Source: Arthrobacter sp. MMS18-M83
GTDB lineage: Bacteria > Actinomycetota > Actinomycetes > Actinomycetales > Micrococcaceae
Assembly: GCF_026683955.1 (NCBI RefSeq)
Contig: NZ_CP113343.1
Location: forward strand, 4,712,001-4,776,000
DNA length: 64,000 nucleotides
Direction of reading: 5' to 3'
The notes under the pieces were generated by a model that had not been told where the DNA came from, made no database searches, and saw nothing but the letters and a program-made list of their open reading frames with translations. This document shows, one piece after another, positions 26,406 to 43,124 of the stretch (position 1 is its first letter; each line of letters starts with the position of its first letter). A program made the position numbers and the translations under genes.

Positions 26406-26416
26406 CGCTCGTCTCC

Positions 26417-26446
26417 CCTTTCCCCGCCTCACGGGACGGAATTAAA
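26417..26446 (-). promoter_or_regulatory. Putative PyrR-binding loop overlapping the pyrR translation start region
   Basis: On the minus strand 26437-26426 reads GTCCCGTGAGGC, matching the core of the known PyrR-binding loop (UCCNGNGAGG with purine before and pyrimidine after). TTCCG and CGGGGAA on either side can form the stem. The element ends directly at the GGGGAG ribosome-binding site. No terminator stem is visible between it and pyrR, so translational repression as reported for mycobacteria is more likely than attenuation. A TAATTT about 45 bases before the ribosome-binding site could be a -10 box. Confidence 0.65.
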
Positions 26447-26583
26447 AAGGAACATTTGCCCTTCAAAATTACCACAGGGATGACGGCCGTCCGACGCGCC
26501 CCGGATCCTCGCAACGCGTTTTAGCTCACACCCATCCGGGTCCAGGCGCTTCCGGGCCGGAGCGGAGCGAATCCACGCAGAAG

Positions 26584-27249: not shown

Positions 27250-28841
27250 GATGCGGCCGCCTCGCTCATCAAGGGAAGATGCAACGTAAATGTAGATCCT
27301 TGGCCCGGGGCCGAATTCACCGTGACCCGCCCCGAATGTGCCTCGGCGATGGCCGTGACAATCGCAAGCCCGAGACCGGCCCCCGCTTCGCCCCGACCGG
27401 TTTCGACTCTGCCGAACCGCTCAAAAATCCGCTCCTGGTCCCGGACCTCGATGCCTATGCCGGTATCGCGGACCCAAACGGCCAGGGTCTCGGGACTGGA
27501 CACCCCGCCTTCGCCGACCACTCCGGGTTCAACCCTGCAACCCAACGCTATTGTGGCTTCATCATCGGTGTACTTGACGGCGTTGGCCGCGAGTTGGACG
27601 AGCGCTTGTGTCAGACGCTGCGGGTCGGCATTCACCACGGCATCGCACTGTTCATCCACTTTCCATTGCCTGTTGGCGAGCACGCGGATCTTTTCCATGA
27701 CCTCGTCAGTGAAGCGGGCCACGTCCAGTTCCTCCCTCCTGACAAACTCCGGACGCTGCGCATTGGCCAGCAACAGGAGATCATCCACCAACCTTTGCAT
27801 CCGGGAGAGTTCATCGAGCAGGAGCGCCCGCGTCTCGGCGACGTCCGACGGGTCGTCATCCGACATCAGTTCCAAGTGACCACGCAGGATGGTCAAGGGC
27901 GTACGAAGTTCATGCCCGACGTCGTCGATGAACCGGTGTTGTTCTTGGGCGCCCGCGTCGAGCCGTTCAAGCATCAGATTGAACTTGTGAGCCAATTGGG
28001 ATACGTCGTCAGCCCGGGACCGCTCGTCCACACGCTGGCTTAGGTCGTCGTGGCTGACTACTTCGGTTGCTTCGCGCATCCGGCGCAGGGGACGGAGAAG
28101 GCGCCCGGCGAAAACGGTGCCGATCAGGCCAGTCGCGAGCAACGCCCCGCCGGAAACCATCGTGTAGGTCCGGATCGAGGAAAGGATTCTCTCCTCCTGG
28201 TCCGACGTATCCCTGCCGATCAGGAAGAATGACTGGCTTCCACCAGCGCCGAGGCTCACCGGCCGGATCGTCAGCCGCATCCGGTCCTTGTCCGCGCCCA
28301 GGCTTCCGACGACGGCGCGTGCCGGGTCCGCCATGTTGAGGACCGGGCCGTACAGGGATTCCGGGAGCACAGGGTCATCCGGGTTGCCCTCTACTTTCCA
28401 ATCCAGGTGCCCGTCGACGAATGCCGCTATCACTTCGTGCCTGCCGGGATCGATTTCGTGTGCCGCTGACCGGAGCTGGGAGATCGACGTGGCGCCAACC
28501 GCTGATGATCGGGCGCGGGCAATTTTTTCCACATTCTGTGCTTTGTCGGAAAGACTCTGATCAACGCGGTTATTCAGTTCCGTGAAGGACACCACGAACG
28601 TCACGACTCCAGTCAGGACGAGGCTGGCAAGCATCATGAGGAGCATCATGGCCAACACCAGGAAGCGGACCGACCGCACCTTGGACTGAACGCCGTTCCA
28701 AACGTTTCCGGCAGTGATACGAAGATGGGAACTTGACGGAGCCGCGGAGTCCGTACCGCGCCACCCCATGACGCGCATGCGCCAAACTCGAGGCATTGGC
28801 CCACCCCATTTTTCACCAACAGCATCGATCAACACCGGCAT
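27246..28841 (-). CDS. Sensor histidine kinase with HAMP domain
   Basis: Membrane sensor partner of the adjacent regulator. A first transmembrane helix (FLVLAMMLLMMLASLVLTGVV) begins near residue 60, followed by an extracytoplasmic sensor domain, a second helix (SGGALLATGLIGTVFAGRLL), HAMP (RPLRRMREATEVVSHDDL), the HisKA box with phospho-acceptor His in FIDDVGHELRTPLT, and the ATPase N (NAVKYTD), G1 (DTGIGI) and G2 (GAGLGLAI) boxes. The longest frame starts at 28940; I prefer the ATG at 28841 because AAAGGAC precedes it (531 residues). ATGs at 28796 and 28769 are further options. The signal sensed is unknown. Confidence 0.9.
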   Translation of the reverse strand: MPVLIDAVGEKWGGPMPRVWRMRVMGWRGTDSAAPSSSHLRITAGNVWNGVQSKVRSVRFLVLAMMLLMMLASLVLTGVVTFVVSFTELNNRVDQSLSDKAQNVEKIARARSSAVGATSISQLRSAAHEIDPGRHEVIAAFVDGHLDWKVEGNPDDPVLPESLYGPVLNMADPARAVVGSLGADKDRMRLTIRPVSLGAGGSQSFFLIGRDTSDQEERILSSIRTYTMVSGGALLATGLIGTVFAGRLLRPLRRMREATEVVSHDDLSQRVDERSRADDVSQLAHKFNLMLERLDAGAQEQHRFIDDVGHELRTPLTILRGHLELMSDDDPSDVAETRALLLDELSRMQRLVDDLLLLANAQRPEFVRREELDVARFTDEVMEKIRVLANRQWKVDEQCDAVVNADPQRLTQALVQLAANAVKYTDDEATIALGCRVEPGVVGEGGVSSPETLAVWVRDTGIGIEVRDQERIFERFGRVETGRGEAGAGLGLAIVTAIAEAHSGRVTVNSAPGQGSTFTLHLPLMSEAAAS

Positions 28842-29144
28842 ACCGTCCTTTTGGGAAGGTGCGGGACCCGATCTGGTATGCAGCCAACCGCAGCACTGGC
28901 CTACCGAAGCGATGTTAGTCAACCAGGCCAGGCGCCGCACGAGTAGTGACTACCTGTTAATTCGGCCTTCTTCCGTTGAGGGTCCGGCTCGGCACGGAGG
29001 CCCTGATCATCGGCAGCGACCCGTGTTGCTGGCGTTCATGAGAAACCGCTCATGTTGGCCACATCCCCCCCTCATGTCCGGTCGCGACAATGGGTATCCC
29101 ACTTTCACTCGGCCCTGGGAAATGACTGACTACGGAGGCTCACC
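28842..29144. promoter_or_regulatory. Divergent intergenic region between the two-component system and the glycan operon
   Basis: About 300 bases without a convincing gene. It should hold promoters for both directions. Three TCATG motifs occur at 29036, 29050 and 29072, the first two forming an inverted pair CATGA-N8-TCATG. A short inverted repeat TGGG-TAT-CCCA lies at 29091-29101. GGAGG seven bases before the GTG at 29145 is the ribosome-binding site of the operon. No clear -35/-10 pair could be picked by eye. Confidence 0.4.
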
Positions 29145-30359
29145 GTGGAACCGCTACGGATTGTCTTGTATTCGCACGACTCGCTGGGACTTGGCCACGT
29201 CCGTCGAAATCTCGCCTTGGCACATTCCCTGACGACCCACTTGCCTGCCCTCATCGGACGGGAAGTCACAGGTGTGCTGATCTCCGGTACGGCCGTTGCC
29301 CCTGGATTTGCCGTTCCGGCGGGCTGGGACTGGGTTCTGCTGCCCGGAGTGGATAAGGGTCCGGCGGGCTACAAGCCCCGGAATTTGGCCTTGACCATGA
29401 CCGAACTGGTGTCGCTGCGTGCCGCGGTGTTATCCGGGGTCTTGGCCGGCTTCAGGCCCGATCTGATCGTGGTGGATCGACACGCCACTGGAATCCACGG
29501 GGAACTCGAAAGTGCGCTGCGCGAAGCACGTTCTGCCGGGCCGGTGAGAATCGTCCTGGGATTGCGGGAAATCCTCGACTCCCCCGTCCCGGCAATGGCC
29601 GAATGGGCCCGGCTTGGAGGTCCCGGCGTGATCAAGGGGATTTTCGACGCGATTTGGATCTACGGTGATCCGTCGATACACGATCCAGTGGCGGCCGGTG
29701 AAATCCCCTTCTCACTCCGCCGCCTGATTCAATTCACTGGATATCTCGCCGAGGGACGACCCACGGGATCTGCGACGACGTGCATGCGGGGGCCTTACTG
29801 TTTAACCACCGTTGGCGGCGGTTCCGACGGTCACCAATTGGCCCTTATCGCAGCGGCCACTCCCCTGCCTCCGGGCTTGGGGCATCTCATAGTCACAGGC
29901 CCGCAGATGCCGGCCAAGCAGGTCCTGGACATACGTCACCGGGCTAATCCAGGCACAAAGGTCCTCACCACGGTCGACGACGTCATCCACCACATGCGGC
30001 ACGCCGCAGCCGTGATCTCGATGGGCGGGTACAACAGCGTCTGCGAAATCATGAGCACCGATGTTCCGGCTCTGATCGTCCCGCGCACTTTGGCGCGCGC
30101 CGAACAGAGGATCAGGGCGCACTCGCTAGCCCGCGCCGGGTTCGTGGACGTTCATGAAATCAGTAGCCTCACTCCGGACATTCTCCATGACTGGTTGCTC
30201 AGGAGGGCGGGGACCGCCATTGACCGGAGTGGTATCCGCTTGGACGGTTTGTCCTGCCTTCCCCGGCTTGCCGCGGCCCTGTTCGATCCGGCACTCGAGC
30301 GGATCAACCTCCGCCCGGCGAAGAAGATGAAAGCCGAGGTAGGCAATGTCGCAATCTGA
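29145..30359 (+). CDS. MurG-like glycosyltransferase (COG4671-type)
   Basis: Predicted GT-B glycosyltransferase, first gene of the island operon. The N-terminus has the SLGLGHVRRNLALAHSL motif characteristic of the COG4671 family (GHxRR loop), and the C-terminal half has the VISMGGYNSVCEIM acceptor/donor segment and ALIVPRTLARAEQRIRA typical of MurG relatives. 404 residues, no signal peptide. The GTG start has an excellent GGAGG site. It overlaps the next gene by 14 bases. Donor sugar unknown; a UDP-sugar is likely from the family. Confidence 0.87.
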   Translation: MEPLRIVLYSHDSLGLGHVRRNLALAHSLTTHLPALIGREVTGVLISGTAVAPGFAVPAGWDWVLLPGVDKGPAGYKPRNLALTMTELVSLRAAVLSGVLAGFRPDLIVVDRHATGIHGELESALREARSAGPVRIVLGLREILDSPVPAMAEWARLGGPGVIKGIFDAIWIYGDPSIHDPVAAGEIPFSLRRLIQFTGYLAEGRPTGSATTCMRGPYCLTTVGGGSDGHQLALIAAATPLPPGLGHLIVTGPQMPAKQVLDIRHRANPGTKVLTTVDDVIHHMRHAAAVISMGGYNSVCEIMSTDVPALIVPRTLARAEQRIRAHSLARAGFVDVHEISSLTPDILHDWLLRRAGTAIDRSGIRLDGLSCLPRLAAALFDPALERINLRPAKKMKAEVGNVAI

Positions 30360-31566
30360 ACCGGAAACGGCTTATGTTCTCAAGATGTATCCGCGTTTCT
30401 CTGAGACGTTCATCGTCTCCGAGATTTTGGCACGGGAGGCCGCCGGAGAAAGGATCAGCATTTTTTCATTGCGGCCACCCACAGGCCCCCGCTTCCACCC
30501 GGAACTGGCCAGGGTCCAAGCACCCGTAAGCTACATCGACCGGCCCCATAAGTCCGAGGATCTCTGGGACATTTTTCGAAGTGCCGAGAAAGCGGGGATC
30601 GGCCACGCAGTGGCCGGGGCCTTCAACGAGTTGACCGGGACGGACCCGGACGACGCGGCCCAGGCGCTCCAACTCGCCATCGCCCTGCAGCAACGCAATA
30701 TTGGGCATTTACACGCCCACTTCGGTTCGATTGCCGCCAATGTGGCGAGGCTTGCTTCATTGTTGACCCGGGTCCCCTACTCGTTCACCGCCCACGCAGC
30801 GGACATCTTCCGTGAATCGAACGACGGCGAGCACTTGCGGATCAAGCTGGAACAGGCCCACCACGCAATAACGATCAGTCAATACAATCTCAGCTACCTG
30901 CGGCGCCGCTTCCCCGGGGCAACGGACCGCCTGCATCTGGTACGCAATGGCTTGGAACTGGAGCGCTTCCCTTATGAGGCACCACGTCCGGTAGGAGAGA
31001 TCGTCCGGATCGCCGCAGTCGGAAGGCTGGTGGAAAAGAAAGGCTTTGAATATCTGCTGGCCGCTGCCGCCGAGCTTCTGGAAGGGGGCTTCCGGCTGGA
31101 GGTGAGGATCGCCGGGGACGGGCAACTCGCCGACGACCTTCAACGGACCATCGACCACCGCAATCTCCGCGCGTCGGTCCGCCTTCTGGGAGCCCAGACC
31201 CAGGATCAGGTCAGATCCCTCCTAAGATCCGCCGACGTGTTTGTCGCACCCTGCGTCATCGGCCAGGACGGGAACGTGGATGGGCTGCCCACCGTCCTCC
31301 TTGAGGCGATGGCCATCGGTGTGCCGTGCATCGGCACCGATGTGACGGGAATCCCGGAGGTCATCAGGGACCGCCACACAGGGATCCTGGTTCCCCCAGG
31401 CAATGGGCACCGGCTGGCCGAGGCCGTACGCGAGATCTGTGGACCTGAAATTGACCGTTCGGCCCTCACGCGAAACGCACGCAGGCTCATCGAACAGAAC
31501 TACGATTCGAGGCAGCAGGCAGTCGAGCTTCGTGCGCTGTCAATGGCGCGGAAGCAGGTTGCCTGA
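30346..31566 (+). CDS. Glycosyltransferase family 4 protein (exopolysaccharide type)
   Basis: GT-B transferase of the colanic-acid/exopolysaccharide type. The N-terminal domain reads YVLKMYPRFSETFIVSEI, a signature of the WcaL-like group; HAHFGS lies in the middle. The C-terminal domain has AAVGRLVEKKGFEYLL and the E-x7-E region in DGLPTVLLEAMAIGVP. 406 residues. The ATG lies inside the end of the preceding gene, and its stop shares a base with the next ATG, so the operon is translated as a coupled chain. Confidence 0.9.
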   Translation: MSQSEPETAYVLKMYPRFSETFIVSEILAREAAGERISIFSLRPPTGPRFHPELARVQAPVSYIDRPHKSEDLWDIFRSAEKAGIGHAVAGAFNELTGTDPDDAAQALQLAIALQQRNIGHLHAHFGSIAANVARLASLLTRVPYSFTAHAADIFRESNDGEHLRIKLEQAHHAITISQYNLSYLRRRFPGATDRLHLVRNGLELERFPYEAPRPVGEIVRIAAVGRLVEKKGFEYLLAAAAELLEGGFRLEVRIAGDGQLADDLQRTIDHRNLRASVRLLGAQTQDQVRSLLRSADVFVAPCVIGQDGNVDGLPTVLLEAMAIGVPCIGTDVTGIPEVIRDRHTGILVPPGNGHRLAEAVREICGPEIDRSALTRNARRLIEQNYDSRQQAVELRALSMARKQVA

Positions 31567-32741
31567 TGCATGTGGCATACGTTTGCGCTGACGAAGGCGT
31601 GCCGGTGTTTGGCACCAAAGGATCGTCTGTCCATGTCCAGGAAATCGTACGCGCCTGGCGCAAGAAGGGGGCGACGGTAACGCTCTACTGCACCCGGCTG
31701 GGCACCGATCGTCCAGACGATCTGGCCGATCTCGACGTCGTCGAAGTTGCCGCCGGGTGCGCCGAAGGACCTGCGCGCGAGCTGGCCCTGGAAGACGCGG
31801 CATTCGCGCTCGCCGCCAGGATCCTTCACGACGGCTGCGAACTGGTTTACGAACGCTATTCGCTATTCAGCCCGGTGGTGTCTGTCGTGGCCAGCGTCCT
31901 CGGCGTCCCGGCCGTACTCGAAGTCAATGCCCCTCTTATTGAAGAACAAGCGCGGTACCGGCAACTCTTTGACGTGGAGCGGGCCGAAAGTGCCCTTGGA
32001 CGCAACGCCCGGGCGGCGGACGTCGTGGCCTGCGTTTCAGCGCCCGTGGTCCGCTGGGTCCACGGCAGGGTACCTACCGCCAGGACTGTGTTGACTCCGA
32101 ACGGCGTCAACGTCGAACGAATAGCCGCCCGTACGGGCGGACGTCACCACGACGGCCACCTCACGGTTGCGTTTGTCGGGACTTTGAAACCCTGGCACGG
32201 GGTTCCCGAGCTGTTTCAGGCTGTCGCACTGGCCAACATGCGCGAGGCCCGCCGCCCGAGCGGACCGAACCGCTGGGCCGTGAAAGTCATAGGCGATGGT
32301 CCAGTCCGGACCACACTTGAAGAGTTGGCAACCTCGCTGGGCTTGGAAGCGGAGTTTACCGGGGCCGTCGCACCCGGATCCGTGCCAGGGCTCCTTCACG
32401 AGTGCGATGTGGCCGCAGCTCCCTACCCCGTTGAGGAGCCCGGACGCGACGACTACTTTTCGCCGTTGAAAGTCTATGAATACATGGCTGCCGGAATGCC
32501 CATCGTGGCAACCTCGGTGGGACAGATCCCGTCCATTCTTGACCATGGACGCACGGGACTGCTGGTTCCGGCCGGCGATCCCGCAGCATTCGCCGCTGCC
32601 CTCGGCGTCCTTGCCGCCGATCCTGGCTTGCGAGATCGCCTGGGAACCCAGGCCCGTGAGCAGGCTGAAATGCGCTTCAGCTGGGACGGCGTGCTCTCGC
32701 GCATCACCGCGGCGTTGCCAGCCCCGCGAAAGGTGGCATGA
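31566..32741 (+). CDS. Glycosyltransferase family 4 protein
   Basis: Third transferase of the operon, 391 residues. The N-terminus has the acceptor-side loop FGTKGSSVHVQEIVRAW seen in GT4 enzymes. The C-terminal domain has VAFVGTLKPWHGV and the region YFSPLKVYEYMAAGMPIVAT, a common GT4 variant. No transmembrane segment. The ATG shares one base with the upstream stop, and the stop overlaps the ABC gene by four bases. With two other transferases it suggests an oligosaccharide of at least three linkages. Confidence 0.89.
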   Translation: MHVAYVCADEGVPVFGTKGSSVHVQEIVRAWRKKGATVTLYCTRLGTDRPDDLADLDVVEVAAGCAEGPARELALEDAAFALAARILHDGCELVYERYSLFSPVVSVVASVLGVPAVLEVNAPLIEEQARYRQLFDVERAESALGRNARAADVVACVSAPVVRWVHGRVPTARTVLTPNGVNVERIAARTGGRHHDGHLTVAFVGTLKPWHGVPELFQAVALANMREARRPSGPNRWAVKVIGDGPVRTTLEELATSLGLEAEFTGAVAPGSVPGLLHECDVAAAPYPVEEPGRDDYFSPLKVYEYMAAGMPIVATSVGQIPSILDHGRTGLLVPAGDPAAFAAALGVLAADPGLRDRLGTQAREQAEMRFSWDGVLSRITAALPAPRKVA

Positions 32742-34621
32742 TCATGACCACGACACCCAGGCATCGGCGTCCAAGACCTGGAATGCAGCCTGCGCGCCCC
32801 CCGCGCAGCGGCAAGGCCGAATCCGGCTTGCGACGGACGTTGCGGTGCGTGCGTCCGCATCTTCACGGCCATCGACTCCTGATGGTCGGAGGGTTCACCG
32901 CCTTGGCCGCAGACGTCCTCTTCCGCCTGATAGAACCATGGCCCGTGAAGCTGGTCATCGACGCCGTCTCCCGTTCCCTCGGCGCGACTCTGCGTAGGCC
33001 GGGCCCCAGCATGGACGCCAGTCTTGAAACTCTTTTGTTGTGCGGTGGAGCGATCGTGGTCATCGCCATCGTGCGTGCCATCGCCAACTACTGGTCCGCG
33101 ATATCGTTCGCCCTTGTCGGCTCAAGGATTGCCGCGGATCTTCGAGCCGAGACCTTCCGTCACGTCCAGAGCCTATCCATGCGCCACCATACCCGTGCTT
33201 CGACCGGCGACACCGTCCAACGCCTTGTTGGAGATGTCTCGCGTCTTCAGGAAGTCGCCGTCACCGCCGGGTTGCCGCTGCTTGGCAACGTGGCCACGCT
33301 CATCTCCATGACGATCATCCTGCTATGGCTCGACCCGCCATTGGCACTCGTCGTCTTTCTAGCGACCGGCGTCTTTGGTCTCCTTTCGCGGAAAAGCTCC
33401 GGACCCATCACCGCTGCCGCCGGCAACTCCCGAAAAGGTGAAGGAACCCTGGCCACGACGGCCGCCCAGACGCTCGGCGCGATCCGGGAAGTCCAGGCCT
33501 ACGGACTTGAGGACACGATCAGCGCGGGCTTCCGGTCCAGCAACCAGGCAACGCTGGGAACGGGGGTTGCCGCCCTCAGGCTCGCCGCCAGTCTTGAGCG
33601 TCGGACCGATGTTCTGATCGGCCTGGCAACGGCAGTCGTATTGGCCGGAGGGGGTTGGCGCGCATTGGACCACTCAATAACGCCGGGAGATTTGATCGTC
33701 TTCCTCACGTATTTGAAGACAGGAATGAAACCGCTGAAGGACCTGGCCAAGCAGACGGGCAGAATTGCCCGCGCCACTGCCTCCGGCGAGAGGGTCGCGG
33801 ACCTCCTCGATGCGCAAACCGATCTTCCCGAGGCGCCCAACGCCCGCGCACTGAAGAGCCGGAACCCGGACATCGTCTTCGAAAACGTCTTCGCCGGCCA
33901 CGGCGAAGGCACGACGGTACTGCACGGGATCAATCTAACGATTCCTTGCGGGGAGCACCTCGCCATCCTCGGACCATCCGGTGCCGGCAAATCCACCCTT
34001 GCCAGCCTTGTCCTTCGCATGATCGACCCGAGCACCGGCACGGTCAGGGTGGGAGGCACGGACGTCAAGGATCTCCAGATCGCTTCGGTACGCTCCCACG
34101 TGTCTATCCTGCTGCAGGACTCGGTCCTGTTCGGAACCACGGTGCGGGACAACATCCGGTTCGGCCGCCTCGACGCGACCGACGACGAAATCGAACGGGC
34201 AGCCGCCCTCGCCCAAGCCGATGGCTTCATCCGCGAGCTCCCCGATGGTTACGACACCATTCTGGGCGATGCTGCGAAGGATCTTTCCGGCGGGCAGCGT
34301 CAACGCCTCGCGATTGCCAGGGCCATCCTCAGACAGGCACCCATCGTCATCCTGGATGAGGCCACCGCCGGACTCGACCCCGCCTCCCGCGAATCGATCC
34401 TGAATGCCCTTGAAGCCCTCACCCGAGGTAGGACGTCAATCACCATCACCCACGACGCACACTCTGCGCGCAACTGCGACCGGGTTATCTGGCTCGAGGA
34501 CGGTCGCATCATCGAAGAAGGCCAGCCGGCCGATCTGCTGAAGGACCCGGCGAGCCGATTCGCTACATGGGTTGAGCAGCAACGAGACACGCGACCAGAC
34601 AGAATGGAGGTGACGGCATGA
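32738..34621 (+). CDS. ABC transporter, fused permease and ATPase (exporter half-transporter)
   Basis: Type IV (ABCB-like) exporter subunit, probably acting as a homodimer. The N-terminal half has a predicted six-helix membrane domain (first helices near residues 45-65 and 95-115). The ATPase half has Walker A GPSGAGKSTLA at about 411-421, the LSGGQRQRLAIARA signature near 515, Walker B VILDEATAGLDP and H-loop ITHDAHS. 627 residues. The first 25 residues are very basic. Location among glycosyltransferases and kinases suggests it flips or exports the glycan or glycolipid they build. It overlaps both neighbours by four bases. Confidence 0.92.
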   Translation: MIMTTTPRHRRPRPGMQPARPPRSGKAESGLRRTLRCVRPHLHGHRLLMVGGFTALAADVLFRLIEPWPVKLVIDAVSRSLGATLRRPGPSMDASLETLLLCGGAIVVIAIVRAIANYWSAISFALVGSRIAADLRAETFRHVQSLSMRHHTRASTGDTVQRLVGDVSRLQEVAVTAGLPLLGNVATLISMTIILLWLDPPLALVVFLATGVFGLLSRKSSGPITAAAGNSRKGEGTLATTAAQTLGAIREVQAYGLEDTISAGFRSSNQATLGTGVAALRLAASLERRTDVLIGLATAVVLAGGGWRALDHSITPGDLIVFLTYLKTGMKPLKDLAKQTGRIARATASGERVADLLDAQTDLPEAPNARALKSRNPDIVFENVFAGHGEGTTVLHGINLTIPCGEHLAILGPSGAGKSTLASLVLRMIDPSTGTVRVGGTDVKDLQIASVRSHVSILLQDSVLFGTTVRDNIRFGRLDATDDEIERAAALAQADGFIRELPDGYDTILGDAAKDLSGGQRQRLAIARAILRQAPIVILDEATAGLDPASRESILNALEALTRGRTSITITHDAHSARNCDRVIWLEDGRIIEEGQPADLLKDPASRFATWVEQQRDTRPDRMEVTA

Positions 34622-35892
34622 GCATGACAGCGCTAAATCGGCCAGGCGCCGACCAATCCCTCGCACTGCGTGACAGCGCCCTTCCTTGCTTAGCTGACCT
34701 GCTCGACAATCACCGGCTGTCAGAGTTGTTGGGAGAGCCGGTACGGATCACAAGGGTCAGATACAAGCCAGGGACGTCCGTGCTGGCCGCCTTTCGCCAT
34801 ACCCGCAATGGCCACCCGGACTACGGCTGGGCGATGACCCGAACCGCGGCCGGCAATTCCAAACTCCGGCGGCGGGAAATCTATTCCAGCACCCACGGCG
34901 GGGATATCCGGCTCCTGCAGCCCGACGGTGGAAAACCGGACGCACTTGTCGCCGTCGGCGGGTTCGAAGACGACTGGGCACTCACCGGAAACCTGCTCTG
35001 GCTCCGGGACCACGGCCTGGAACGGCTTGGGGCCCTCCCCCGAACAGGAGACAGGCTGGTGAGCGGTGCGGCAAGCATAGTCCGCTACAAGCCCGAACGG
35101 CGCCTGGTCCTCATGGACCACTCCCCCGCTGGCTCCATCGTCATCAAAGCCGCCGCCGAGTCATTCAACAACGCAAGGCAACAGCATTTTTGGCAGTGGC
35201 TGCATCGGCACGGGGTGCCTGTCCTTCCGTGGCTCGGAGACGTGGGGTGCGCAGATCACGGCATCAGCGCCAGCCCCTTCTGGGGCGCCGGGGATCTTGG
35301 GTCAGTCGACGACGACGACGGGTCCCGCCACGCGGGCGAGGCCCTGGCCAGGCTCCACAACGCCCCGGGATACGCAGGCAGCTACTCCGCCGATCCGCAG
35401 CCGAGCCTCCTCGGCCAGCTCATGGCCACCACGTCGATGATCACCACACTCCTGCCAATACTTGAAGAACCCGCCATGAAACTCGCTGCCAGGCTCAGCG
35501 GTCAGCTCCGGGCTCAAACAAGCCACCGACACCACACCCTGCTCCACGGCGATTTCTCTCCGGACCAGGTCCTCGTCGCCGATCAGGACGTCCGGATCAT
35601 CGATTTTGACCGGGCCCACTCCGGCGTGCCGGAAGCGGACATCGGTTCGTTCGCCGCCGTCGAAGAAATCAATGCCCGGACGCCGGGCTCAGAGACGGCG
35701 GGCGGTTCAAAAACGGCGCACCTGATCGAAGGCTACCTCGAGGCCGGAGGCAGGTTCTCGCGGGCAAATCTCAATACCTGGGCGGCATTCAGGCTGTTCA
35801 CCGGCAGCGTCGATCCGTTCCGGGACCGTGCTGCCGACTGGGCCGCTGACGCGGCGTGGCAGATCGACCGGGCACTGGAGTTGACCAGATGA
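34618..35892 (+). CDS. Aminoglycoside-phosphotransferase-like kinase 1
   Basis: Protein-kinase-like fold of the APH/choline-kinase superfamily; substrate unknown. The catalytic loop HGDFSPDQ starts at His310, and the metal-binding DFD is in VRIIDFDRAHSG. The position usually filled by Asn in the loop (HGDxxxxN) is Gln. N-terminal VRYKPGTSVLAAFRH resembles the nucleotide-binding lobe, and a second VRYKPERRLVLM copy at about 160 suggests a duplicated beta element. 424 residues. It is more distant from the next two kinases than they are from each other. Resistance is unlikely given the glycan context; phosphorylation of a sugar or lipid intermediate is inferred. Confidence 0.8.
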   Translation: MSMTALNRPGADQSLALRDSALPCLADLLDNHRLSELLGEPVRITRVRYKPGTSVLAAFRHTRNGHPDYGWAMTRTAAGNSKLRRREIYSSTHGGDIRLLQPDGGKPDALVAVGGFEDDWALTGNLLWLRDHGLERLGALPRTGDRLVSGAASIVRYKPERRLVLMDHSPAGSIVIKAAAESFNNARQQHFWQWLHRHGVPVLPWLGDVGCADHGISASPFWGAGDLGSVDDDDGSRHAGEALARLHNAPGYAGSYSADPQPSLLGQLMATTSMITTLLPILEEPAMKLAARLSGQLRAQTSHRHHTLLHGDFSPDQVLVADQDVRIIDFDRAHSGVPEADIGSFAAVEEINARTPGSETAGGSKTAHLIEGYLEAGGRFSRANLNTWAAFRLFTGSVDPFRDRAADWAADAAWQIDRALELTR

Positions 35893-37028
35893 ATTGGCAG
35901 CCTCCCGTCCCGACGGACGCAGTGGACGATTCCGGGACTCCGTGGCACACCGTGCGGGCCTGGCCGGATAAAGCCCCTGGAGACTATCTCCTTGAAGTCC
36001 TGACGCCGGGACGCAAGGGCGTCCGAGCCGCCCACGTGCGGCGCGGCCACTTTGAACTGGTGCCTCGGGACGATCCTGGACTGCCGGCCTTGCTGGTGGA
36101 GGCGAGCCGAGGGGAAGTCATCTCCCATCGACCCCACAAGCGCGCGGTCATCCGGGCCAAGGGGCAGTACATCAAGGTGTTCCGGCCCGGGCGGGCCGTC
36201 GTGTCGGCCGAACGGTGTGAACAAATGGGTGCCCTTCTGCTCGCTGATAGTTTCATCGCGCCCAGGATCAACCACAGTTCCACGGACGTCATGGTTTTCG
36301 GTTCAATCCCCGGACGGACGCTTCGCGAACTTGGCGAGGACCCCAACGTCAACGATGAAACGTTCGCCGCCATATGGGCGCAATGGTCGCGTGCATGGGT
36401 CTCGCAAATCGTCGGGCCGCATGGTGGGGCGCGGCATGACCTCATTGCGGCCTTGCCGATCCATCCGCCGGAGAAGGAAGCGTCCAATCTCTGGCTGTGG
36501 GTGAATCGCTGGGTACACCACAACGAAAGCTCCCCCGAGTCGTGGCCGGAACGTGACGTTCTACGCGCCAGGGCGAATCAGGTGACCGAAGACCTCCTGC
36601 GGTCAACACCGGATCCGTTGGTCTGGGCACATGGAGACCTTCACGACAAGCAAGTCATCTGGACCGAAGAAGAATCCCCGCTCGGATTGCTGGACTTCGA
36701 CGCAGCCGCCCAAGCTGAGGCGGCCCGGGATCTGGCCAATATTGACGTCCACTTGAAGCTTCGGCTCCGACTGCACCTGCTGACTCCTGAACGCTACCTG
36801 GTAGCCCACACACAGGTACTGGCCGCCTCGAAAGACCTGCACGTGAGTCCGGCCCGATTTCACGCCTATGCGGACGCCACTCGCGTCCGGCTAGCCTGCC
36901 TCTACTCCTTCCGCCCGGGGCTTGGATCCGTGGCGTCCGGTCTTCTCGACGAACAGGCAGCCCAAAGGCCATTCTCCGAATTCAACACTCCGGGCAGTTC
37001 CGGGGCGGCTCGGGAGATGATCATATGA
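35889..37028 (+). CDS. Aminoglycoside-phosphotransferase-like kinase 2 (tandem paralogue)
   Basis: APH-superfamily protein of 379 residues. The ATG at 35889 overlaps the previous stop (ATGA); an upstream extension of the frame is not supported. The catalytic loop HGDLHDKQ starts at His248, with Gln in the Asn position, and LLDFDAAAQAEAARDLANIDVHL carries the metal-binding Asp. YIKVFRPGRA holds the likely ATP-site Lys. It aligns along its length with the next gene (same MNW-PPVP start, RRAHKRAVI-like block, IWAQWSRAW block), so the two arose by tandem duplication. Substrate unknown. Confidence 0.8.
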   Translation: MNWQPPVPTDAVDDSGTPWHTVRAWPDKAPGDYLLEVLTPGRKGVRAAHVRRGHFELVPRDDPGLPALLVEASRGEVISHRPHKRAVIRAKGQYIKVFRPGRAVVSAERCEQMGALLLADSFIAPRINHSSTDVMVFGSIPGRTLRELGEDPNVNDETFAAIWAQWSRAWVSQIVGPHGGARHDLIAALPIHPPEKEASNLWLWVNRWVHHNESSPESWPERDVLRARANQVTEDLLRSTPDPLVWAHGDLHDKQVIWTEEESPLGLLDFDAAAQAEAARDLANIDVHLKLRLRLHLLTPERYLVAHTQVLAASKDLHVSPARFHAYADATRVRLACLYSFRPGLGSVASGLLDEQAAQRPFSEFNTPGSSGAAREMII

Positions 37029-38119
37029 ATTGGCACCCTCCCGTGCCGGCTAAGGTCAGCGATGGCGCAGGCGTCACATGGCATGTCCGCAGGGCATGGC
37101 CCGGATCCTTGGCCGGCGAGTTCGTCCTCGAAGTACGGGACCCAGTTGGGCCCGGAGTACGGGCCGCCCACTTCCGGCGGGGGAATTTCGATCCTGTGCC
37201 CCGCGATGATCCGCTGATTCCATCCCTCGCGCGGGAAGCCGCGAAGGGCAATGTCATAGTCCACCGTGCCCACAAACGCGCCGTCATCCATGCCGGTGAC
37301 AAATACGTCAAAGTATTCCGGCCGGGCCGGGCTGTGGATGCCGCGAGCAAGCACCGCATCGCAGCCTCCCTTCTGGACTGCAGTTCGTTCAATACCCCGC
37401 GCATCCTCGAGGCCGGGACCGATGTCATGGTCTTCAGCAGCCTTGGCGGACGCTCCTACTACGAACTCGGACAGGATCACGCCACGGTCACCGACGCAGC
37501 TTTTGATGCCGCCTGGGCGCAATGGTCACAGGCTTGGGCCACAACTGCAACCATTGCCAAAAGCGCTGGCTTCCGCGACAGCCTCGACAGCCTGCCGGCC
37601 CACCCGCCGGAGACAGAGGTGGCCAATCTCCAGCGCTGGATCGATCATTGGCTACGGCACAGCCAGGGGGTTCCGGAAGCGGCCACGGCACGATCTGCTT
37701 TGCTTGCGCGCGCGGAGGCGGCCATCTGCGGGCTCAGCGGCTCGCCCGCCGATCCACTCGGATGGGCGCATGGCGACTTGCATGACAAACAGATATTCGG
37801 GTCCGACGAGAGCTGCGGGCCGGGGCTCTTGGACTTCGACGAGGACTGCCGTGCTGAGGCCGCCCTGGACCTCGCGAACCTCAACGTCCACGTGGAACTG
37901 CGGCTCCGCCAAAAGCTCCTGACAACGCGCCGGTATGTCATCGCCCACCGCCGCATTGTGGCCACCGCAGAAAAACTACACGTCAGCCCGGAACGATTCG
38001 CCGCTTACGCTGCGTGCACCAGGCTTCGCCTCGCGTGCCTGTATTCCTTCCGCCCTCCTTGGGGAGCCGAGGCCACGAAATACCTGAGCGAACCGACCAC
38101 GCCGGAAAGAGCGCTTTAG
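37025..38119 (+). CDS. Aminoglycoside-phosphotransferase-like kinase 3 (tandem paralogue)
   Basis: Paralogue of the preceding gene, 364 residues, overlapping it by four bases. Catalytic loop HGDLHDKQ starts at His249; LLDFDEDCRAEAALDLANLNVH is the metal-site segment; KYVKVFRPGRA the probable ATP-site Lys. Key residues are kept in both copies, so both look active. It is the last of seven overlapping genes; the next gene follows after 76 bases with its own strong ribosome-binding site. Role inferred only from context: phosphorylation of a glycan precursor or of the exported product. Confidence 0.8.
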   Translation: MNWHPPVPAKVSDGAGVTWHVRRAWPGSLAGEFVLEVRDPVGPGVRAAHFRRGNFDPVPRDDPLIPSLAREAAKGNVIVHRAHKRAVIHAGDKYVKVFRPGRAVDAASKHRIAASLLDCSSFNTPRILEAGTDVMVFSSLGGRSYYELGQDHATVTDAAFDAAWAQWSQAWATTATIAKSAGFRDSLDSLPAHPPETEVANLQRWIDHWLRHSQGVPEAATARSALLARAEAAICGLSGSPADPLGWAHGDLHDKQIFGSDESCGPGLLDFDEDCRAEAALDLANLNVHVELRLRQKLLTTRRYVIAHRRIVATAEKLHVSPERFAAYAACTRLRLACLYSFRPPWGAEATKYLSEPTTPERAL

Positions 38120-38195
38120 TACGGGGACGCCTCAGCCAGCTTCACTGCCACCACACCGAATCAGAGGTCAAGCCACAGACACGAAGGAGAGACTT

Positions 38196-39641
38196 ATGGA
38201 AACCATCGGCACCCAACCGAAGGCTGGCGTTCTCGTGCCGCCGACGCGGGCCTCGAACCTTACCGTGTCCGTCATAGGCACCGGCTATCTGGGTGCAACC
38301 CATGCAGTCTGCATGGCCATCTTGGGCCATGACGTCATCGGAATAGACGTGGACGAGAGCAAGATCGACGCCCTCTCGCGAGGGCAGCTCCCGTTCTTCG
38401 AACCCGGGCTGCGCGACCTCCTCTGCCAGGCCCTGGCAACCGGACGGCTGAAGTTCACCACCGATTTCTCTGCCGCGGGGCCAGCGGACCTTCATTTCAT
38501 CTGTGTCGGCACGCCACAGGCGCCCGACTCAGACGCCGCTGATCTGCACTTCGTGCATGCCGCTGTTCGCCGGCTTACCCAACATCTGGGCCGCAGGTGC
38601 CTGATCGTCGGGAAGTCCACGGTGCCCATCGGGACGGCGGCACGGCTGGCGTCCTTGGTACGTTCGTTGTCGCCCGGAGGCAACGCAGTGGAACTTGCTT
38701 GGAACCCGGAATTCCTCCGGGAGGGGCACGCCGTCGAAGACACGCTCAGACCCAACCGCCTTGTCTTCGGAACTGCCAGTGAGTGGGCCCTCGCGCAGCT
38801 GTCCAATTGCTACCTTCCCCTGATTGAAACCGGCACTCCCGTGGTTGCCACCGACCTGGCAACCGCCGAACTCGTCAAAGCCGCAGCGAACTCGTTCCTC
38901 GCCACAAAAATCTCCTACATCAACGCAATGGCGGAAATCTGCGAGGCCACCGGCGCCGACGTCAATCACCTGGCGGAAGCGCTCGCCTACGACACCCGGA
39001 TCGGCGGGCAGTTCCTGAAGCCCGGATTGGGTTTCGGCGGAGGGTGCCTGCCCAAGGACATCAGAGCGTTCGCCTACCGGGCGCGTGAATTGGGCGTCGG
39101 ACAGGCCGTGAGCTTCTTGAACGAAGTCGACCACATCAATCGACGCCGCAGGCAGCGGACCGTCGACCTCATATCCGATCTCGCCTACGGAAACCTCGAC
39201 GACGTCAAAGTCACCGTGCTCGGCGCGGCGTTCAAACCGGACTCCGACGACATCCGGGACGCCCCTGCCCTGGACGTCGCACGGATGCTCTACGCAGCCG
39301 GCGCCCAGGTCACTGTCTTCGACCCCCAGGCAATGGACAACGCCCGGAGGAAGTACCCCGAACTAAGCTACGCAGCCAGCCTCGAAGAAGCGGTGACCGG
39401 CGCGGAGGTCGTGGCGCTCCTCACCGAATGGGCGATCTTCCGGGAAGCCGACCCCGTCAGGCTCGGCCAACTCGTCGCTCGGCGAAATATCGTCGATGGA
39501 AGGCACGTCCTTGACCCAAGCGCCTACCGGGCGGCAGGCTGGGACTACCGTGCGCTGGGCGTGCCTTCTCCCTTGAACTCCCTTACCCTCCTGCCGGCCA
39601 CAATTCCCGGCCTCGTTCATGACACCGCATCAGTTCAATAG
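38196..39641 (+). CDS. UDP-glucose 6-dehydrogenase family protein
   Basis: NAD-dependent oxidation of a UDP-hexose to the uronic acid, most likely UDP-glucose to UDP-glucuronate. The Rossmann motif GTGYLG is at residues 28-33 with Asp in GIDVDESK for NAD; catalytic Cys284 is in GFGGGCLPKD; the KPDSDDIRDAPALDVARML segment marks the C-terminal domain. 481 residues, with a 20-residue N-terminal tail. AAGGAG lies seven bases before the ATG. It would supply uronic acid to the upstream transferases. The 3' end overlaps a convergent gene by 12 bases. UDP-ManNAc dehydrogenase is the alternative. Confidence 0.9.
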   Translation: METIGTQPKAGVLVPPTRASNLTVSVIGTGYLGATHAVCMAILGHDVIGIDVDESKIDALSRGQLPFFEPGLRDLLCQALATGRLKFTTDFSAAGPADLHFICVGTPQAPDSDAADLHFVHAAVRRLTQHLGRRCLIVGKSTVPIGTAARLASLVRSLSPGGNAVELAWNPEFLREGHAVEDTLRPNRLVFGTASEWALAQLSNCYLPLIETGTPVVATDLATAELVKAAANSFLATKISYINAMAEICEATGADVNHLAEALAYDTRIGGQFLKPGLGFGGGCLPKDIRAFAYRARELGVGQAVSFLNEVDHINRRRRQRTVDLISDLAYGNLDDVKVTVLGAAFKPDSDDIRDAPALDVARMLYAAGAQVTVFDPQAMDNARRKYPELSYAASLEEAVTGAEVVALLTEWAIFREADPVRLGQLVARRNIVDGRHVLDPSAYRAAGWDYRALGVPSPLNSLTLLPATIPGLVHDTASVQ

Positions 39642-40652
39642 ATCGTCCATGACAGGTGCGCCCTTGTCGTTGTTGGTCAACGGCGCGAGTCCCCAGGAAG
39701 CTTCGATCGTGTGCAAGAGGGAGTAGTGGCCATACGGGGCCCCCGACTGGTAGCCCTTCTTTGCGGCCGGTCCGGCGAAAATCGCCCCTACTGCATTGCT
39801 TTCGTCGCTGCCTTCATCCCACGTGATCACCAGGAGGGACTTCTGCGTCACGAACGCGGGTGAAGCAAGGATCAGGGGAACCTGCTGTGCAAGCCAAGCA
39901 TCGCCGGTCTCCACCGGGCAGTCGTGCATGTCATTGCATAGGTTCGGACTGATGAACACATAGTTCGGAAGGGTGGAAGCGGAGGCCAGATCCGCGGTGA
40001 ACCGCGTGAACGGGACCACGTGCGCCGCGCAATTGTTCCTGTCGCCGGTGACGCCCGGGTAGTACATGAAAGGATTGTGCCGCACTGCGTATTTGCCCGA
40101 GTTACTGGCCGCACAAGGGGCCGGCATGCCCTCGGCGTACATTTTCCAGCTCCGGCCCGATTGCTCAATCCGGTCAGCGATGCTCGGGACGGCCGCCGTG
40201 CAGTTACCACCCGGACTGCAGTCGTCCGCTATCCCGGCGGTGGTGCCGCTCGTGAGGGCAAGGTAATTGGGCAGGCTCGGATGGGCGAGGGCCTGATAGT
40301 TGTTGGCCAGGGCCGATTCGGCGGCAAGCTTGTTGATGTAGGGAGCGGCAGCCTTGCCGAGGATGTCCGAGGCGGGTTTGTTCTCCTCAACAATTATGAC
40401 AACGTGATCGAAACCGCCTGCGCCGGCAGCGACGGTGCCGTTCGATTGCGAGGTAGCTGGCGCTGACGGCGAGACTGATCGACTGACGTCGGGGACTGTC
40501 GGCGAGACTGATCGACCGACGTCGGGAACTGACGGCGAGGCTGAGTCCGAACCCGAGGGGCCGGCTGAGGGACCTTGGGGCTGGCATCCGGTCGTCAGCA
40601 CCAGCGTGAGAAGACCAACGACCGCAAGATGGTGCCTGCTCTTGGCTCGCAT
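39630..40652 (-). CDS. Secreted phosphoesterase-family (PF04185-like) protein
   Basis: Extracytoplasmic hydrolase related to acid phosphatases/phospholipase C of the alkaline-phosphatase superfamily. The ATG at 40652 starts a signal peptide with hydrophobic core VVGLLTLVLTTG and Cys23; the box LTTGC is an imperfect lipobox. A Ser/Pro-rich linker follows (residues about 30-65) with 11-residue repeats around SVSPxVPDVxR. The catalytic domain starts FDHVVIIVEENK, with HPSLPNYLALTSG holding the nucleophile region and a TWDEGSDES metal segment. 340 residues. Substrate unknown. It is convergent with the dehydrogenase and could process the island product outside the cell. Confidence 0.82.
   Translation of the reverse strand: MRAKSRHHLAVVGLLTLVLTTGCQPQGPSAGPSGSDSASPSVPDVGRSVSPTVPDVSRSVSPSAPATSQSNGTVAAGAGGFDHVVIIVEENKPASDILGKAAAPYINKLAAESALANNYQALAHPSLPNYLALTSGTTAGIADDCSPGGNCTAAVPSIADRIEQSGRSWKMYAEGMPAPCAASNSGKYAVRHNPFMYYPGVTGDRNNCAAHVVPFTRFTADLASASTLPNYVFISPNLCNDMHDCPVETGDAWLAQQVPLILASPAFVTQKSLLVITWDEGSDESNAVGAIFAGPAAKKGYQSGAPYGHYSLLHTIEASWGLAPLTNNDKGAPVMDDLLN
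40468..40544. repeat. 33-bp tandem repeat in the phosphoesterase linker
   Basis: Two near-identical 33-bp units (40468-40500 and 40501-40533) and the start of a third encode the repeated Ser/Pro/Val linker. In-frame unit length means copy number can change without disrupting the protein. Confidence 0.8.
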
Positions 40653-40960
40653 CCCCTGATGATATGCGCGGTGTGCGAATCCGGCTATACCCGAGATACC
40701 CGTTAGATCGATGACGGCTAGGCGGCCTGACCCGAATCCTTCCAAGTGGTTACCCGATTGGAGGGGACCGGAGCGGCCCTCAAACGAGTGGCTGGCACTC
40801 AAGCTAGAAGAGGTTCAGCGGCCGTATTCTCACAGAATGGGGGCCGTTGAGGTCGGCAAAGCATCGAAGGGATGCGTCTGGGAATGACTTGGCTGAAGTC
40901 GAGTTTCGCCACCGTCAACGCGAGGGCCTCGCCAATGCGGCGCATGATAAAAGGAGCATC
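40653..40960. other. Divergent intergenic region
   Basis: 308 bases between the secreted phosphoesterase and the binding lipoprotein. A coding frame runs in from the downstream gene but has no convincing start. AAAGGAG just before 40961 is the ribosome-binding site of the lipoprotein. I see no RNA gene, strong palindrome or clear promoter. Confidence 0.5.
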
Positions 40961-41866
40961 ATGATGGCGATCTTTGCACGCACGCGGTTGAGAGTGGCTG
41001 GGATCTGCGCCGCGTCGGCCCTGGCCCTCAGCGCTTGCGGCAGTACTGGACCCGCGACGAGCACAGCGCCCGCAAGCCGTGCACCCACGGCGATCACCGT
41101 CGCGAAAGATGTTGCCCTGACTGGCAGCCCGACATTTGACAAGATCAGATCCTCCGGAAAAGTCCGAATCGGCGTCAAGCAGGATCAGCCGGGCCTGGGC
41201 TTCAAAGACGCAACGACCGCTGAATACAGTGGTTTCGACATTCAGATCGCCACGTGGATCGCAGCATCGCTGGGTTACGACAAGGACAAGATCGAGTTCA
41301 CGCCGATTCTCTCGGGTACGCGTGAATCCGCTATCACCACCGGAGCCATTGACTACTATGTGGGTAGTTACCCGATCACAGACCACCGCAAGAAAACGAT
41401 CGACTTCGCCGGCCCCTACCTGGTCACGGGCCAGGGCCTGATGGTGAGGAAAGACAACGCATCCATAGGCAGCGAAAAGGACCTTGCGGGAAAGAACGTT
41501 TGCTCCGCCACCGGGGTGGACTCGATAAAGTACATCCAGGCCAACTTCCCAGCCGCCCAAACAACTGAGCTTGACACCTACGCCAAATGCGTCGAGTCGC
41601 TCAAGGCCGGGCAGGTGGACGCAGTTACTACCGATCAAGCAGTCCTGATGGGCTACACCGCCCAGGACCCGGACCATCTGAAGGTGGTCGGTCAGCCGTT
41701 CACTACCGAAAAGTACGGCGTGGGCATTCCGAAGGGCGACAAGGCCCTGCGGACATTCATCGGAAATATGCTTACTGATGGTGGCGCCATCTGGAAGAAG
41801 ATCTACAACGACACGCTCGGTAAGTCGGGGACAACAAGTGAGCAGCCCAAAGTCGACCAGTACTGA
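40961..41866 (+). CDS. Glutamate-type ABC transporter substrate-binding lipoprotein
   Basis: Periplasmic-binding-protein family 3 lipoprotein, similar to GluB-type glutamate binding proteins. The signal peptide ends in the lipobox LSAC (Cys26 if the first ATG is used), and the mature domain begins KIRSSGKVRIGVKQDQPGLGF, followed by a GFDIQIATWIAASLG segment. 301 residues. The ATG at 40961, five bases after AAAGGAG, is preferred; an ATG directly after it is equivalent. No permease or ATPase gene lies on either side, so it must use components encoded elsewhere or act as a sensor. A strong terminator follows. Confidence 0.9.
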   Translation: MMAIFARTRLRVAGICAASALALSACGSTGPATSTAPASRAPTAITVAKDVALTGSPTFDKIRSSGKVRIGVKQDQPGLGFKDATTAEYSGFDIQIATWIAASLGYDKDKIEFTPILSGTRESAITTGAIDYYVGSYPITDHRKKTIDFAGPYLVTGQGLMVRKDNASIGSEKDLAGKNVCSATGVDSIKYIQANFPAAQTTELDTYAKCVESLKAGQVDAVTTDQAVLMGYTAQDPDHLKVVGQPFTTEKYGVGIPKGDKALRTFIGNMLTDGGAIWKKIYNDTLGKSGTTSEQPKVDQY

Positions 41867-41905
41867 GGATCCGGAGCGCGGTGGATCTCCTTGGCCCGGC
41901 AACAC

Positions 41906-41937
41906 AAAACCCCGGCTGGAATCCCAGCCGGGGTTTT
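41906..41937. terminator. Strong bidirectional terminator
   Basis: Perfect 14-bp arms AAAACCCCGGCTGG and CCAGCCGGGGTTTT around the loop AATC, with T-tracts in both directions. It separates the plus-strand lipoprotein from the minus-strand nusB and marks the edge of the island. Confidence 0.95.
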
Positions 41938-41958
41938 GGCGATTACTACTGCCCCTGC

Positions 41959-43099: not shown

Positions 43100-43124
43100 G
43101 AACGGGCCCTGGAGGTCCCCCCGT

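What the first reader, a model, noticed from the sequence alone, without database searches (positions are those of the whole stretch)
29145..39641. Candidate undescribed system: three glycosyltransferases, an ABC exporter, three APH-type kinases and a uronate-forming dehydrogenase
Seven genes overlap by 1-14 bases, then a UDP-glucose dehydrogenase follows. No polymerase, Wzx flippase or Wzz was seen, so this is not a Wzx/Wzy capsule locus. Three APH-like kinases in an exporter operon are unusual. I infer assembly of a short, phosphorylated, uronic-acid-containing oligosaccharide or glycolipid exported by the ABCB-type half-transporter.
Basis: inference. Interest (0 to 1): 0.7.

Follow-up and report, generated by a model that had tools for sequence, protein, structure and literature searches.

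The report
Widespread undescribed glycan-making and export operon
Three sugar-joining enzymes, a membrane exporter and two or three sugar-kinase-like enzymes sit in one operon that recurs, patchily but usually as a set, in many actinobacteria and in some proteobacteria including E. coli plasmids, and it probably builds and exports an acidic surface or secreted sugar for which I found no description.

Summary
Seven genes (GT1-GT2-GT3-ABC-K1-K2-K3) overlap by 1-14 bases, and a UDP-glucose dehydrogenase (UGD) follows 76 bases later. It is rare (GT1 in 20 of 394 class genomes) but co-inherited (GT3 in 18, all among those 20). Two distant loci keep the set in another order. Two Rhodobacterales plasmids carry it beside a two-component system, with K1 and K2 in one frame; E. 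coli plasmids carry it with an alginate-export-type outer-membrane protein and a sugar dehydrogenase. Best reading: a two-component-controlled pathway without Wzx/Wzy that makes an acidic glycan and exports it through an ABCB-type transporter, with paired APH-fold kinases acting on the glycan or its precursor. Product, kinase substrates and control are inferred, not shown.

The parts
26584..27249 (-). OmpR-type response regulator (RR), transcribed away from the operon
   Evidence: Pfam Response_reg + Trans_reg_C. A relative at 50% identity or more lies in the fetched stretch of 38 of 71 loci; the best other RR in this genome is 44% identical.
27246..28940 (-). Sensor histidine kinase (HK); true start is probably about 240 bases inside the listed ORF
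   Evidence: Pfam HAMP, HisKA, HATPase_c. In L047, L048 and L049 related HKs align from residue 82 onward.
29145..30359 (+). GT1: MurG-like glycosyltransferase with GT28 C-terminal domain
   Evidence: Pfam Glyco_tran_28_C; profile matches MurG structures 1f0k and 7d1i.
30346..31566 (+). GT2: GT4-type glycosyltransferase, best NCBIfam relative EpsE (198.7 bits, below its cut-off of 400)
31566..32741 (+). GT3: second GT4-type glycosyltransferase
32738..34621 (+). ABC: ABCB-type half-transporter (MsbA / Sav1866 kind)
   Evidence: Pfam ABC_membrane + ABC_tran in one chain; NCBIfam MsbA_rel 361.9 bits, below its cut-off of 780.4; PDB profile hits.
34618..35892 (+). K1: APH-fold kinase, loop HGDFSPDQ, with an extra N-terminal domain of about 115-150 residues
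35889..37028 (+). K2: APH-fold kinase, loop HGDLHDKQ
   Evidence: Pfam APH; 51% identical to K3.
37025..38119 (+). K3: APH-fold kinase, duplicate of K2
   Evidence: Pfam APH; model pLDDT 94.0; Foldseek best match glucosamine kinase 6hwk, E 7.4e-10.
38196..39641 (+). UGD: UDP-glucose 6-dehydrogenase type nucleotide sugar dehydrogenase
   Evidence: Pfam three UDPG_MGDP_dh domains; NCBIfam TIGR03026 417 bits, over its cut-off of 189.8.
26478..41956 (.). Segment of about 15.5 kb absent from the same site (pyrR-nusB) in the close relative G012
   Evidence: blastn: window 21504-26477 and 41957-46867 match G012 at 88-89% with 181 bases between.

Best explanation
A self-contained, patchily distributed pathway for making and exporting an acidic saccharide, switched by a two-component system. 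Proposed steps: UGD (or another copy in the genome) makes UDP-glucuronate. GT1 (MurG-like) adds the first sugar to an acceptor and GT2 and GT3 extend it on the cytoplasmic face. K1 and K2 (and K3), acting as a pair, transfer phosphate from ATP to the saccharide or its acceptor, which I think most likely marks or caps it for export. The single-chain ABCB-type transporter, presumably a homodimer, then moves it across the membrane; in the E. coli form an AlgE-like outer-membrane barrel may complete secretion. Shown here: gene content, order, co-inheritance, K1-K2 fusion, intact kinase motifs, predicted kinase folds, and association with TCS and UGD. Inferred: that the product is a glycan, that it contains uronate, what the kinases phosphorylate, the direction of transport, and that the TCS controls the operon.
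For: Set and order in 67 of 71 long loci from about 20 named genera. Fairer sample: of 20 loci fetched around GT1 hits from class genomes, 12 have the full set in the same order and 2 (with weak kinase matches) have it as GT1-ABC-GT2-GT3-K-K. GT3 genomes (18 of 394) are all among the 20 GT1 genomes; K1 genomes at 198 bits or more (16; line drawn after seeing the list) overlap in 15. K1 and K2 look joined in one protein (two catalytic loops, 600 or more residues) in 57 of the 120 listed of 220 K1 relatives, the named ones mostly Rhodobacterales, and in Brachybacterium L115 and Kocuria L098. Catalytic H, D and Q are invariant in 33 K1 sequences; H and D invariant and Q nearly so in 41 K2-type sequences. 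UGD in 26 of 71 loci, against 5 matches of its family over cut-off in the whole 5.1-Mb genome. E. coli plasmid operon continues into an Alginate_exp barrel and a sugar dehydrogenase. RR relative in 38 of 71 loci; a TCS (RR 37-39% identical) also lies beside the operon in both Rhodobacterales plasmids.
Against: No product is known and no enzyme was tested. No initiating phosphoglycosyltransferase was seen in the operon; one PF02397 gene lies elsewhere in the genome. UGD is absent nearby in 45 of 71 loci and RR in 33 of 71, so neither is part of an obligatory core. K1 is absent from L066, L067 and L075, and from the Tn3-interrupted L060 stretch, so K1 may be dispensable. Six of the 20 loci are incomplete. 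K1-like kinases at E 1e-25 are in 37 of 394 genomes, 21 of them without a GT1 match, some read in other settings; 4 of the 20 GT1 genomes have no K1 match at that line. The APH fold says nothing about substrate: structural matches range over antibiotic, choline, methylthioribose and sugar kinases. In the two Rhodobacterales loci no porin was recognised beside the operon, though few neighbours were tested.
Confidence: 0.5

Rival explanations
1. Specialised saccharide metabolite with self-protection: the GTs build a bioactive oligosaccharide, the APH-type kinases keep it inactive inside the cell as its phosphate, and the ABC exporter expels it, as recalled for streptomycin-6-phosphate (StrA, StrVW, StrK).
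For: APH-fold kinases plus an ABCB exporter; patchy accessory distribution (20 of 394); a phosphoesterase-family gene lies at 39630-40802 in the window, with a 33% identical relative beside one variant locus, L196.
Against: The window phosphoesterase matched none of the 80 related loci and 1 of 20. No other neighbour group recurs in more than 7 of 82 loci (groups not annotated). UGD and alginate-type porin association fits a surface or secreted glycan better.
Confidence: 0.17
2. Glycolipid pathway: GT1 glycosylates a membrane lipid, GT2 and GT3 extend it, the ABC transporter flips the glycolipid like MsbA or PglK, and K1/K2 act on the lipid or its head group.
For: MurG-like GT1, MsbA-type exporter, no polymerase seen; K2 has a sub-threshold choline/ethanolamine kinase match (25.8 of 29 bits).
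Against: A porin in the E. coli plasmid form is not expected for a flipped membrane lipid.
Confidence: 0.2
3. The kinases make activated sugars (sugar-1- or 6-phosphate) for a nucleotide-sugar pathway, as maltokinase and glucosamine kinase do, and the final glycan carries no phosphate.
For: K1 profile matches maltokinase (5jy7, 28.4 bits), next to capreomycin phosphotransferase (29 bits); K3 fold matches glucosamine kinase best in Foldseek.
Against: No partner gene for such a pathway recurs in more than 7 of 82 loci (groups not annotated). The glucosamine-kinase signature is absent from K1-K3. For K3 glucosamine kinase is tied with many APH kinases in VIA-align.
Confidence: 0.1
4. The kinases are antibiotic-resistance enzymes that happen to sit in the operon.
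For: They match the Pfam family that holds aminoglycoside kinases.
Against: Co-inheritance with GTs and exporter across phyla, two kinase types fused to each other; low APH scores of 30-56 bits.
Confidence: 0.03

Closest known systems
ABC-transporter-dependent O-antigen/capsule pathway with chain-terminating kinase (E. coli O9a WbdD)
   Same: Cytoplasmic GTs, ABC export; in O9a a kinase-methyltransferase, WbdD, regulates chain length and acts by phosphorylation (title and start of abstract of PMC3482155 in the listing; paper not opened).
   Different: There the exporter is ABC-2 type (recalled); here ABCB type in one chain. No methyltransferase domain in K1-K3. Two distinct APH-fold kinases.
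Streptomycin-type export of a phosphorylated saccharide (recalled)
   Same: APH-family kinase plus ABCB-type exporter plus GTs.
   Different: No aminocyclitol or deoxysugar gene in the operon; UGD and two-component system instead.
Actinobacterial glucosamine kinase / maltokinase family
   Same: APH fold; D-x-H in the catalytic loop of K2/K3 as reported for SjGlcNK (passages of PMC6520443).
   Different: Signature Q-x2-RE-x2-YA-x3-LP-x-W absent; different gene setting.
Teichuronic acid operon (tua) of Bacillus
   Same: UGD of TuaD type and a TuaC-like GT4.
   Different: Scores far below the model cut-offs (TuaC 89 of 550; TuaD 370.7 of 700); kinases and ABC exporter in the operon.
Sinorhizobium/Rhizobium plasmid cluster with GT1- and GT2-like genes
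   Same: GT1 and GT2 relatives (34-38% identity) in the same order.
   Different: Different third GT, different ABC genes, a cyclase, and in S. meliloti a polysaccharide lyase; no APH kinase match in the 25 kb.

Membership tests
Wzx/Wzy-dependent polysaccharide locus | Wzx flippase and Wzy polymerase encoded with the GTs | tested here: not met
   None in the eight operon proteins by Pfam or NCBIfam. Other neighbours recur in at most 7 of 82 loci and were not annotated. Genes elsewhere in the genome were not searched.
ABC-2 (KpsMT / Wzm-Wzt) dependent capsule or O-antigen pathway | Separate ABC-2 permease and ATPase | tested here: not met
   One chain with PF00664 + PF00005.
ABC-dependent glycan pathways in the wide sense | GTs and an ABC exporter co-inherited, no polymerase in the operon | tested here: met
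   Whether the exporter carries glycan was not testable.
WbdD-type chain terminator | Kinase fused to methyltransferase | tested here: not met
   K1-K3 show no methyltransferase domain.
WbdD-type chain terminator | Phosphorylation of the glycan end | not testable with these tools
   Needs enzyme assay.
APH / choline-kinase-like phosphotransferase superfamily (PF01636) | Score over the Pfam cut-off and catalytic H-x-D loop with metal ligand | tested here: met
   55.9, 35.8 and 30.3 bits against 23.2; loops HGDxxxxQ. The usual ligand is N (recalled); here Q.
Actinobacterial glucosamine kinase | Signature Q-x2-RE-x2-YA-x3-LP-x-W (PMC6520443) | tested here: not met
   Absent in K1, K2 and K3.
Class V lanthipeptide kinase LxmK | NCBIfam NF038156 score over 315 | tested here: not met
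   K1 scores 34.9, although its fold is nearest to LxmK.
Teichuronic acid operon | TuaC and TuaD model cut-offs | tested here: not met
   89 of 550 and 370.7 of 700 bits.
UDP-glucose dehydrogenase / nucleotide sugar dehydrogenase | TIGR03026 cut-off | tested here: met
   417 bits against 189.8. Substrate not tested.
Known anti-phage defence systems (PADLOC) | Match of operon proteins to defence models | tested here: not met
   Of the eight proteins only the ABC matched, to parts of the mad3, mad8 and AriA models; I take these as shared ATPase domains.

The most novel reading that the evidence does not exclude
A phosphorylation-gated glycan exporter: two paired APH-fold kinases put phosphate on a uronate-bearing saccharide, and that phosphate is the ticket read by an ABCB-type transporter, giving a further way to export bacterial glycans beside Wzx/Wzy, synthase and ABC-2 pathways, spread from actinobacteria to proteobacteria under two-component control.
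Probability: 0.25. Interest if true: 0.8.

Novelty: new variant of a known kind. Interest (0 to 1): 0.6.

Why it matters
The cassette recurs in actinobacterial genera that, as recalled, live in soil, on plants and on animals, and on E. coli plasmids predicted to be conjugative. Eight paper searches aimed at it showed no description in their listed titles and abstracts (open-licence PMC only; one search listed 20 of 52). If it makes a surface or secreted acidic glycan, it explains many 'aminoglycoside phosphotransferase' annotations that have nothing to do with drugs, and offers a small, transferable system for studying kinase-coupled glycan export.

Tried and rejected
Considered and set aside: Wzx/Wzy capsule (no such model in the operon). 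Defence system. Class V lanthipeptide maturation, because K1's fold is nearest to LxmK: its NCBIfam score is far below the cut-off; a lyase partner or precursor peptide was not specifically searched for. Glucosamine kinase (signature absent). Teichuronic acid. Drug resistance as main role (co-inheritance).

Led nowhere: neighbour clustering with a crude gene caller gave 11 groups of 6 or 7 loci each, not annotated further. Promoter and terminator scan did not exceed shuffles. No Rfam match in 26000-42500. PDB profile search for K2/K3 gave no hit at 0.001; for GT2, GT3 and ABC it gave only broad families. ABC against plasmids at 1e-100 gave none; a Paracoccus ABC query at 1e-60 then found Rhodobacterales and E. 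coli ones among 18 records. GC content of the segment is like that of its surroundings within 20000-50000. K1's first ~115 residues are barely tested by fold search. Glucosamine kinase leads the Foldseek list for K3 but is tied with many APHs in VIA-align. Promoter-motif comparison upstream of GT1 was not done; no trees were built.

Counts against the reading: L066, L067 and L075 lack K1; six of the 20 loci are incomplete (L190 and L197 on contigs under 9 kb; L192, L194, L196 and L198 on longer stretches). Rows dropped before the 71-locus count: 9 of 80 with under 8 kb downstream of GT1, L081 among them. Cut-offs differ between the GT1 (1e-20), GT3 (1e-60) and K1 (1e-25, then 198 bits chosen after seeing the list) counts. 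Hypergeometric values (3.4e-29 and 4.9e-22) treat genomes as independent and overstate significance; genome lists there were copied by hand. Genus names were copied by hand. Of the papers listed, only PMC6520443 was opened, and only for passages.


Full report
WHAT IS THERE. Eight genes on the + strand run from 29145 to 39641: GT1, GT2, GT3, ABC, K1, K2, K3 and UGD. The first seven overlap by 14, 1, 4, 4, 4 and 4 bases, and UGD starts 76 bases after K3. Pfam places them as a GT28-C-domain glycosyltransferase, two GT4-type glycosyltransferases, a single-chain ABC exporter, three APH-family kinases and a complete UDP-glucose-type dehydrogenase. The window lies in a 5.1-Mb genome whose nearest named relatives are Arthrobacter and Pseudarthrobacter.

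IS IT MORE THAN CHANCE. Among 59 genomes (own, 36 of the same genus, 22 of other families), GT1 at E 1e-70 or better is in the own genome, in 6 of 36 same-genus genomes and in 2 of 22 others; all eight relatives carry GT1-GT2-GT3-ABC-K1-K2 in that order. In named genomes, 80 loci were kept of 564 confirmed stretches. Of the 71 with 8 kb or more downstream of GT1, GT2, GT3 and ABC are in 71, K1 in 67, K2-type in 70, and all five in 67. They come from Arthrobacter, Rathayibacter, Microbacterium, Brevibacterium, Kocuria, Rothia, Janibacter, Ornithinimicrobium, Brachybacterium, Actinomyces, Buchananella, Gleimia, Arachnia, Tessaracoccus, Corynebacterium and others.

A FAIRER SAMPLE. The 80 loci favour near relatives, so I also used 394 genomes drawn evenly from the class. 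GT1 (E 1e-20) is in 20. GT3 (E 1e-60) is in 18 and all 18 are among the 20. K1-like kinases (E 1e-25) are in 37, of which 21 have no GT1 match; the 16 at 198 bits or more, a line drawn after seeing the list, include 15 of the GT1 genomes. Twenty loci covering 21 of the 24 GT1 matches were read: 12 carry the full set in the same order; 2 (L193, L195) carry it reordered as GT1-ABC-GT2-GT3-K-K, with weak kinase matches; 6 are incomplete, two of them on contigs under 9 kb. A set that survives reordering is a strong sign that the parts work together.

BEYOND ACTINOBACTERIA. A plasmid of Paracoccus aestuarii has GT-GT4-GT4-ABC-kinase with a histidine kinase and response regulator transcribed away from it, as in the window (the regulator is 39% identical). 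Pseudorhodobacter turbinis has the same, plus a small PepSY-domain protein beside the two-component genes. In both, one long frame (740 residues, and an ORF of up to 810) takes the place of K1 and K2. Of 220 relatives of the E. coli K1, 120 were listed; 58 of these have 600 or more residues and 57 carry two catalytic loops. The same fusion is seen in Brachybacterium (L115) and Kocuria (L098). An E. coli plasmid carries GT-GT4-GT4-ABC-K1-K2, then an Alginate_exp outer-membrane protein and a nucleotide sugar dehydrogenase; the three GT genes are in 18 of 5,426 complete E. coli genomes, always on plasmids. Sinorhizobium and Rhizobium plasmids hold a more distant cousin with GT1 and GT2 relatives but other partners and no kinase match.

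TWO LINKED PARTS. A response regulator at least 50% identical to the window's lies in 38 of the 71 loci, although the next best regulator in this genome is only 44% identical. UGD lies in 26 of 71 loci; in 18 of them it is co-directional and directly downstream of the last kinase. Either is present in 55 of 71, neither in 16. This genome holds 5 matches of the dehydrogenase family over cut-off, this one included, which can explain loci without UGD.

AN ACCESSORY SEGMENT. Window positions 26478-41956 are missing from the same place, between pyrR and nusB, in the close relative G012, where 181 bases lie between flanks 88-89% identical. G002 has the operon at another site while its pyrR-nusB site has only about 1.4 kb between the flanks. 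Gain and loss cannot be told apart here, but the distribution is that of an accessory unit. In Arthrobacter sp. MI7-26 a Tn3-type transposase gene begins about 1 kb after ABC, where K1-K3 would be expected; its K3, 89% identical, is on a contig of the same length.

HOW IT PROBABLY WORKS. Inference: the two-component system turns the operon on; UDP-glucuronate from UGD and other nucleotide sugars are joined by GT1, GT2 and GT3 at the inner face of the membrane; K1 and K2 add phosphate to the saccharide or its acceptor; the ABC transporter exports it. The alginate-type barrel in the E. coli form favours a secreted, soluble, acidic saccharide over a flipped lipid. My preferred role for the kinases is a cap or export mark, by analogy with WbdD (start of abstract seen in the listing), but precursor activation is not excluded.

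WHAT SPEAKS AGAINST. No product is known. UGD is missing near 45 of 71 loci and the regulator near 33. K1 is missing in L066, L067 and L075. K1-like kinases occur in other settings. No initiating phosphoglycosyltransferase was seen in the operon; one is elsewhere in the genome.

NOVELTY. Each component belongs to a known superfamily; the operon or its kinases fail a tested feature of the specific systems in the membership table (Wzx/Wzy, ABC-2, WbdD, glucosamine kinase, LxmK, teichuronic acid). Eight paper searches aimed at it and one on the rhizobial cousin showed no description in their listed titles and abstracts; only open-licence PMC papers are held and one paper was opened, so this is not proof of absence from print.

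Noticed in passing
L060 (Arthrobacter sp. MI7-26) 16440-19208: A Tn3-family transposase gene lies about 1 kb after ABC where K1-K3 would be expected; the operon looks split by a natural insertion.
   Followed up: partly
L081 (record titled Vibrio cholerae 35D, contig00053): The contig carries GT1-GT2-GT3 at Micrococcales-like similarity (51-52%, one GT2 piece 82%); it is probably a contaminant contig in that assembly.
   Followed up: no
L051 1454-2662, L055 6897-8021, L056 6567-7733, L057 6443-7645, L058 4697-5794: Stand-alone K2-type kinases (53-56% identical to window K2) in genomes that also have the operon; four lie apart from it, the L051 one about 8 kb upstream of it on the other strand. 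Neighbours differ (ABC exporter, ferritin, PucR, rhomboid, ABC-2).
   Followed up: partly
window 39630-40802 (-) and 40847-41866 (+): A phosphoesterase-family protein (PF04185) and an amino-acid-type solute-binding protein lie in the same 15.5-kb accessory segment; the phosphoesterase matched none of 80 related loci and one of 20 (L196). The solute-binding protein was not searched there.
   Followed up: partly
L140 and L144 (S. meliloti pSymB, Rhizobium hidalgonense plasmid): A distant cousin cluster: GT1- and GT2-like genes with an oligopeptide-type ABC importer, an adenylate/guanylate cyclase, a sugar dehydrogenase and, in S. meliloti, a polysaccharide lyase.
   Followed up: partly
L145 4856-5203: A small PepSY-domain protein sits between the two-component genes and GT1 in Pseudorhodobacter turbinis and may be part of the sensing module.
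   Followed up: no
L199, L200, L201: K1-like kinases lie among genes of like lengths (about 185, 269-325 and 324-346 residues) in three genomes of one family; not compared by sequence; perhaps another kinase-containing system.
   Followed up: no
L047 16583-18512, L049 16651-18493: Operons of the three-kinase form without UGD are followed by an alpha/beta hydrolase (L047) or an untested 278-residue gene (L049) and a beta-lactamase-fold protein.
   Followed up: partly
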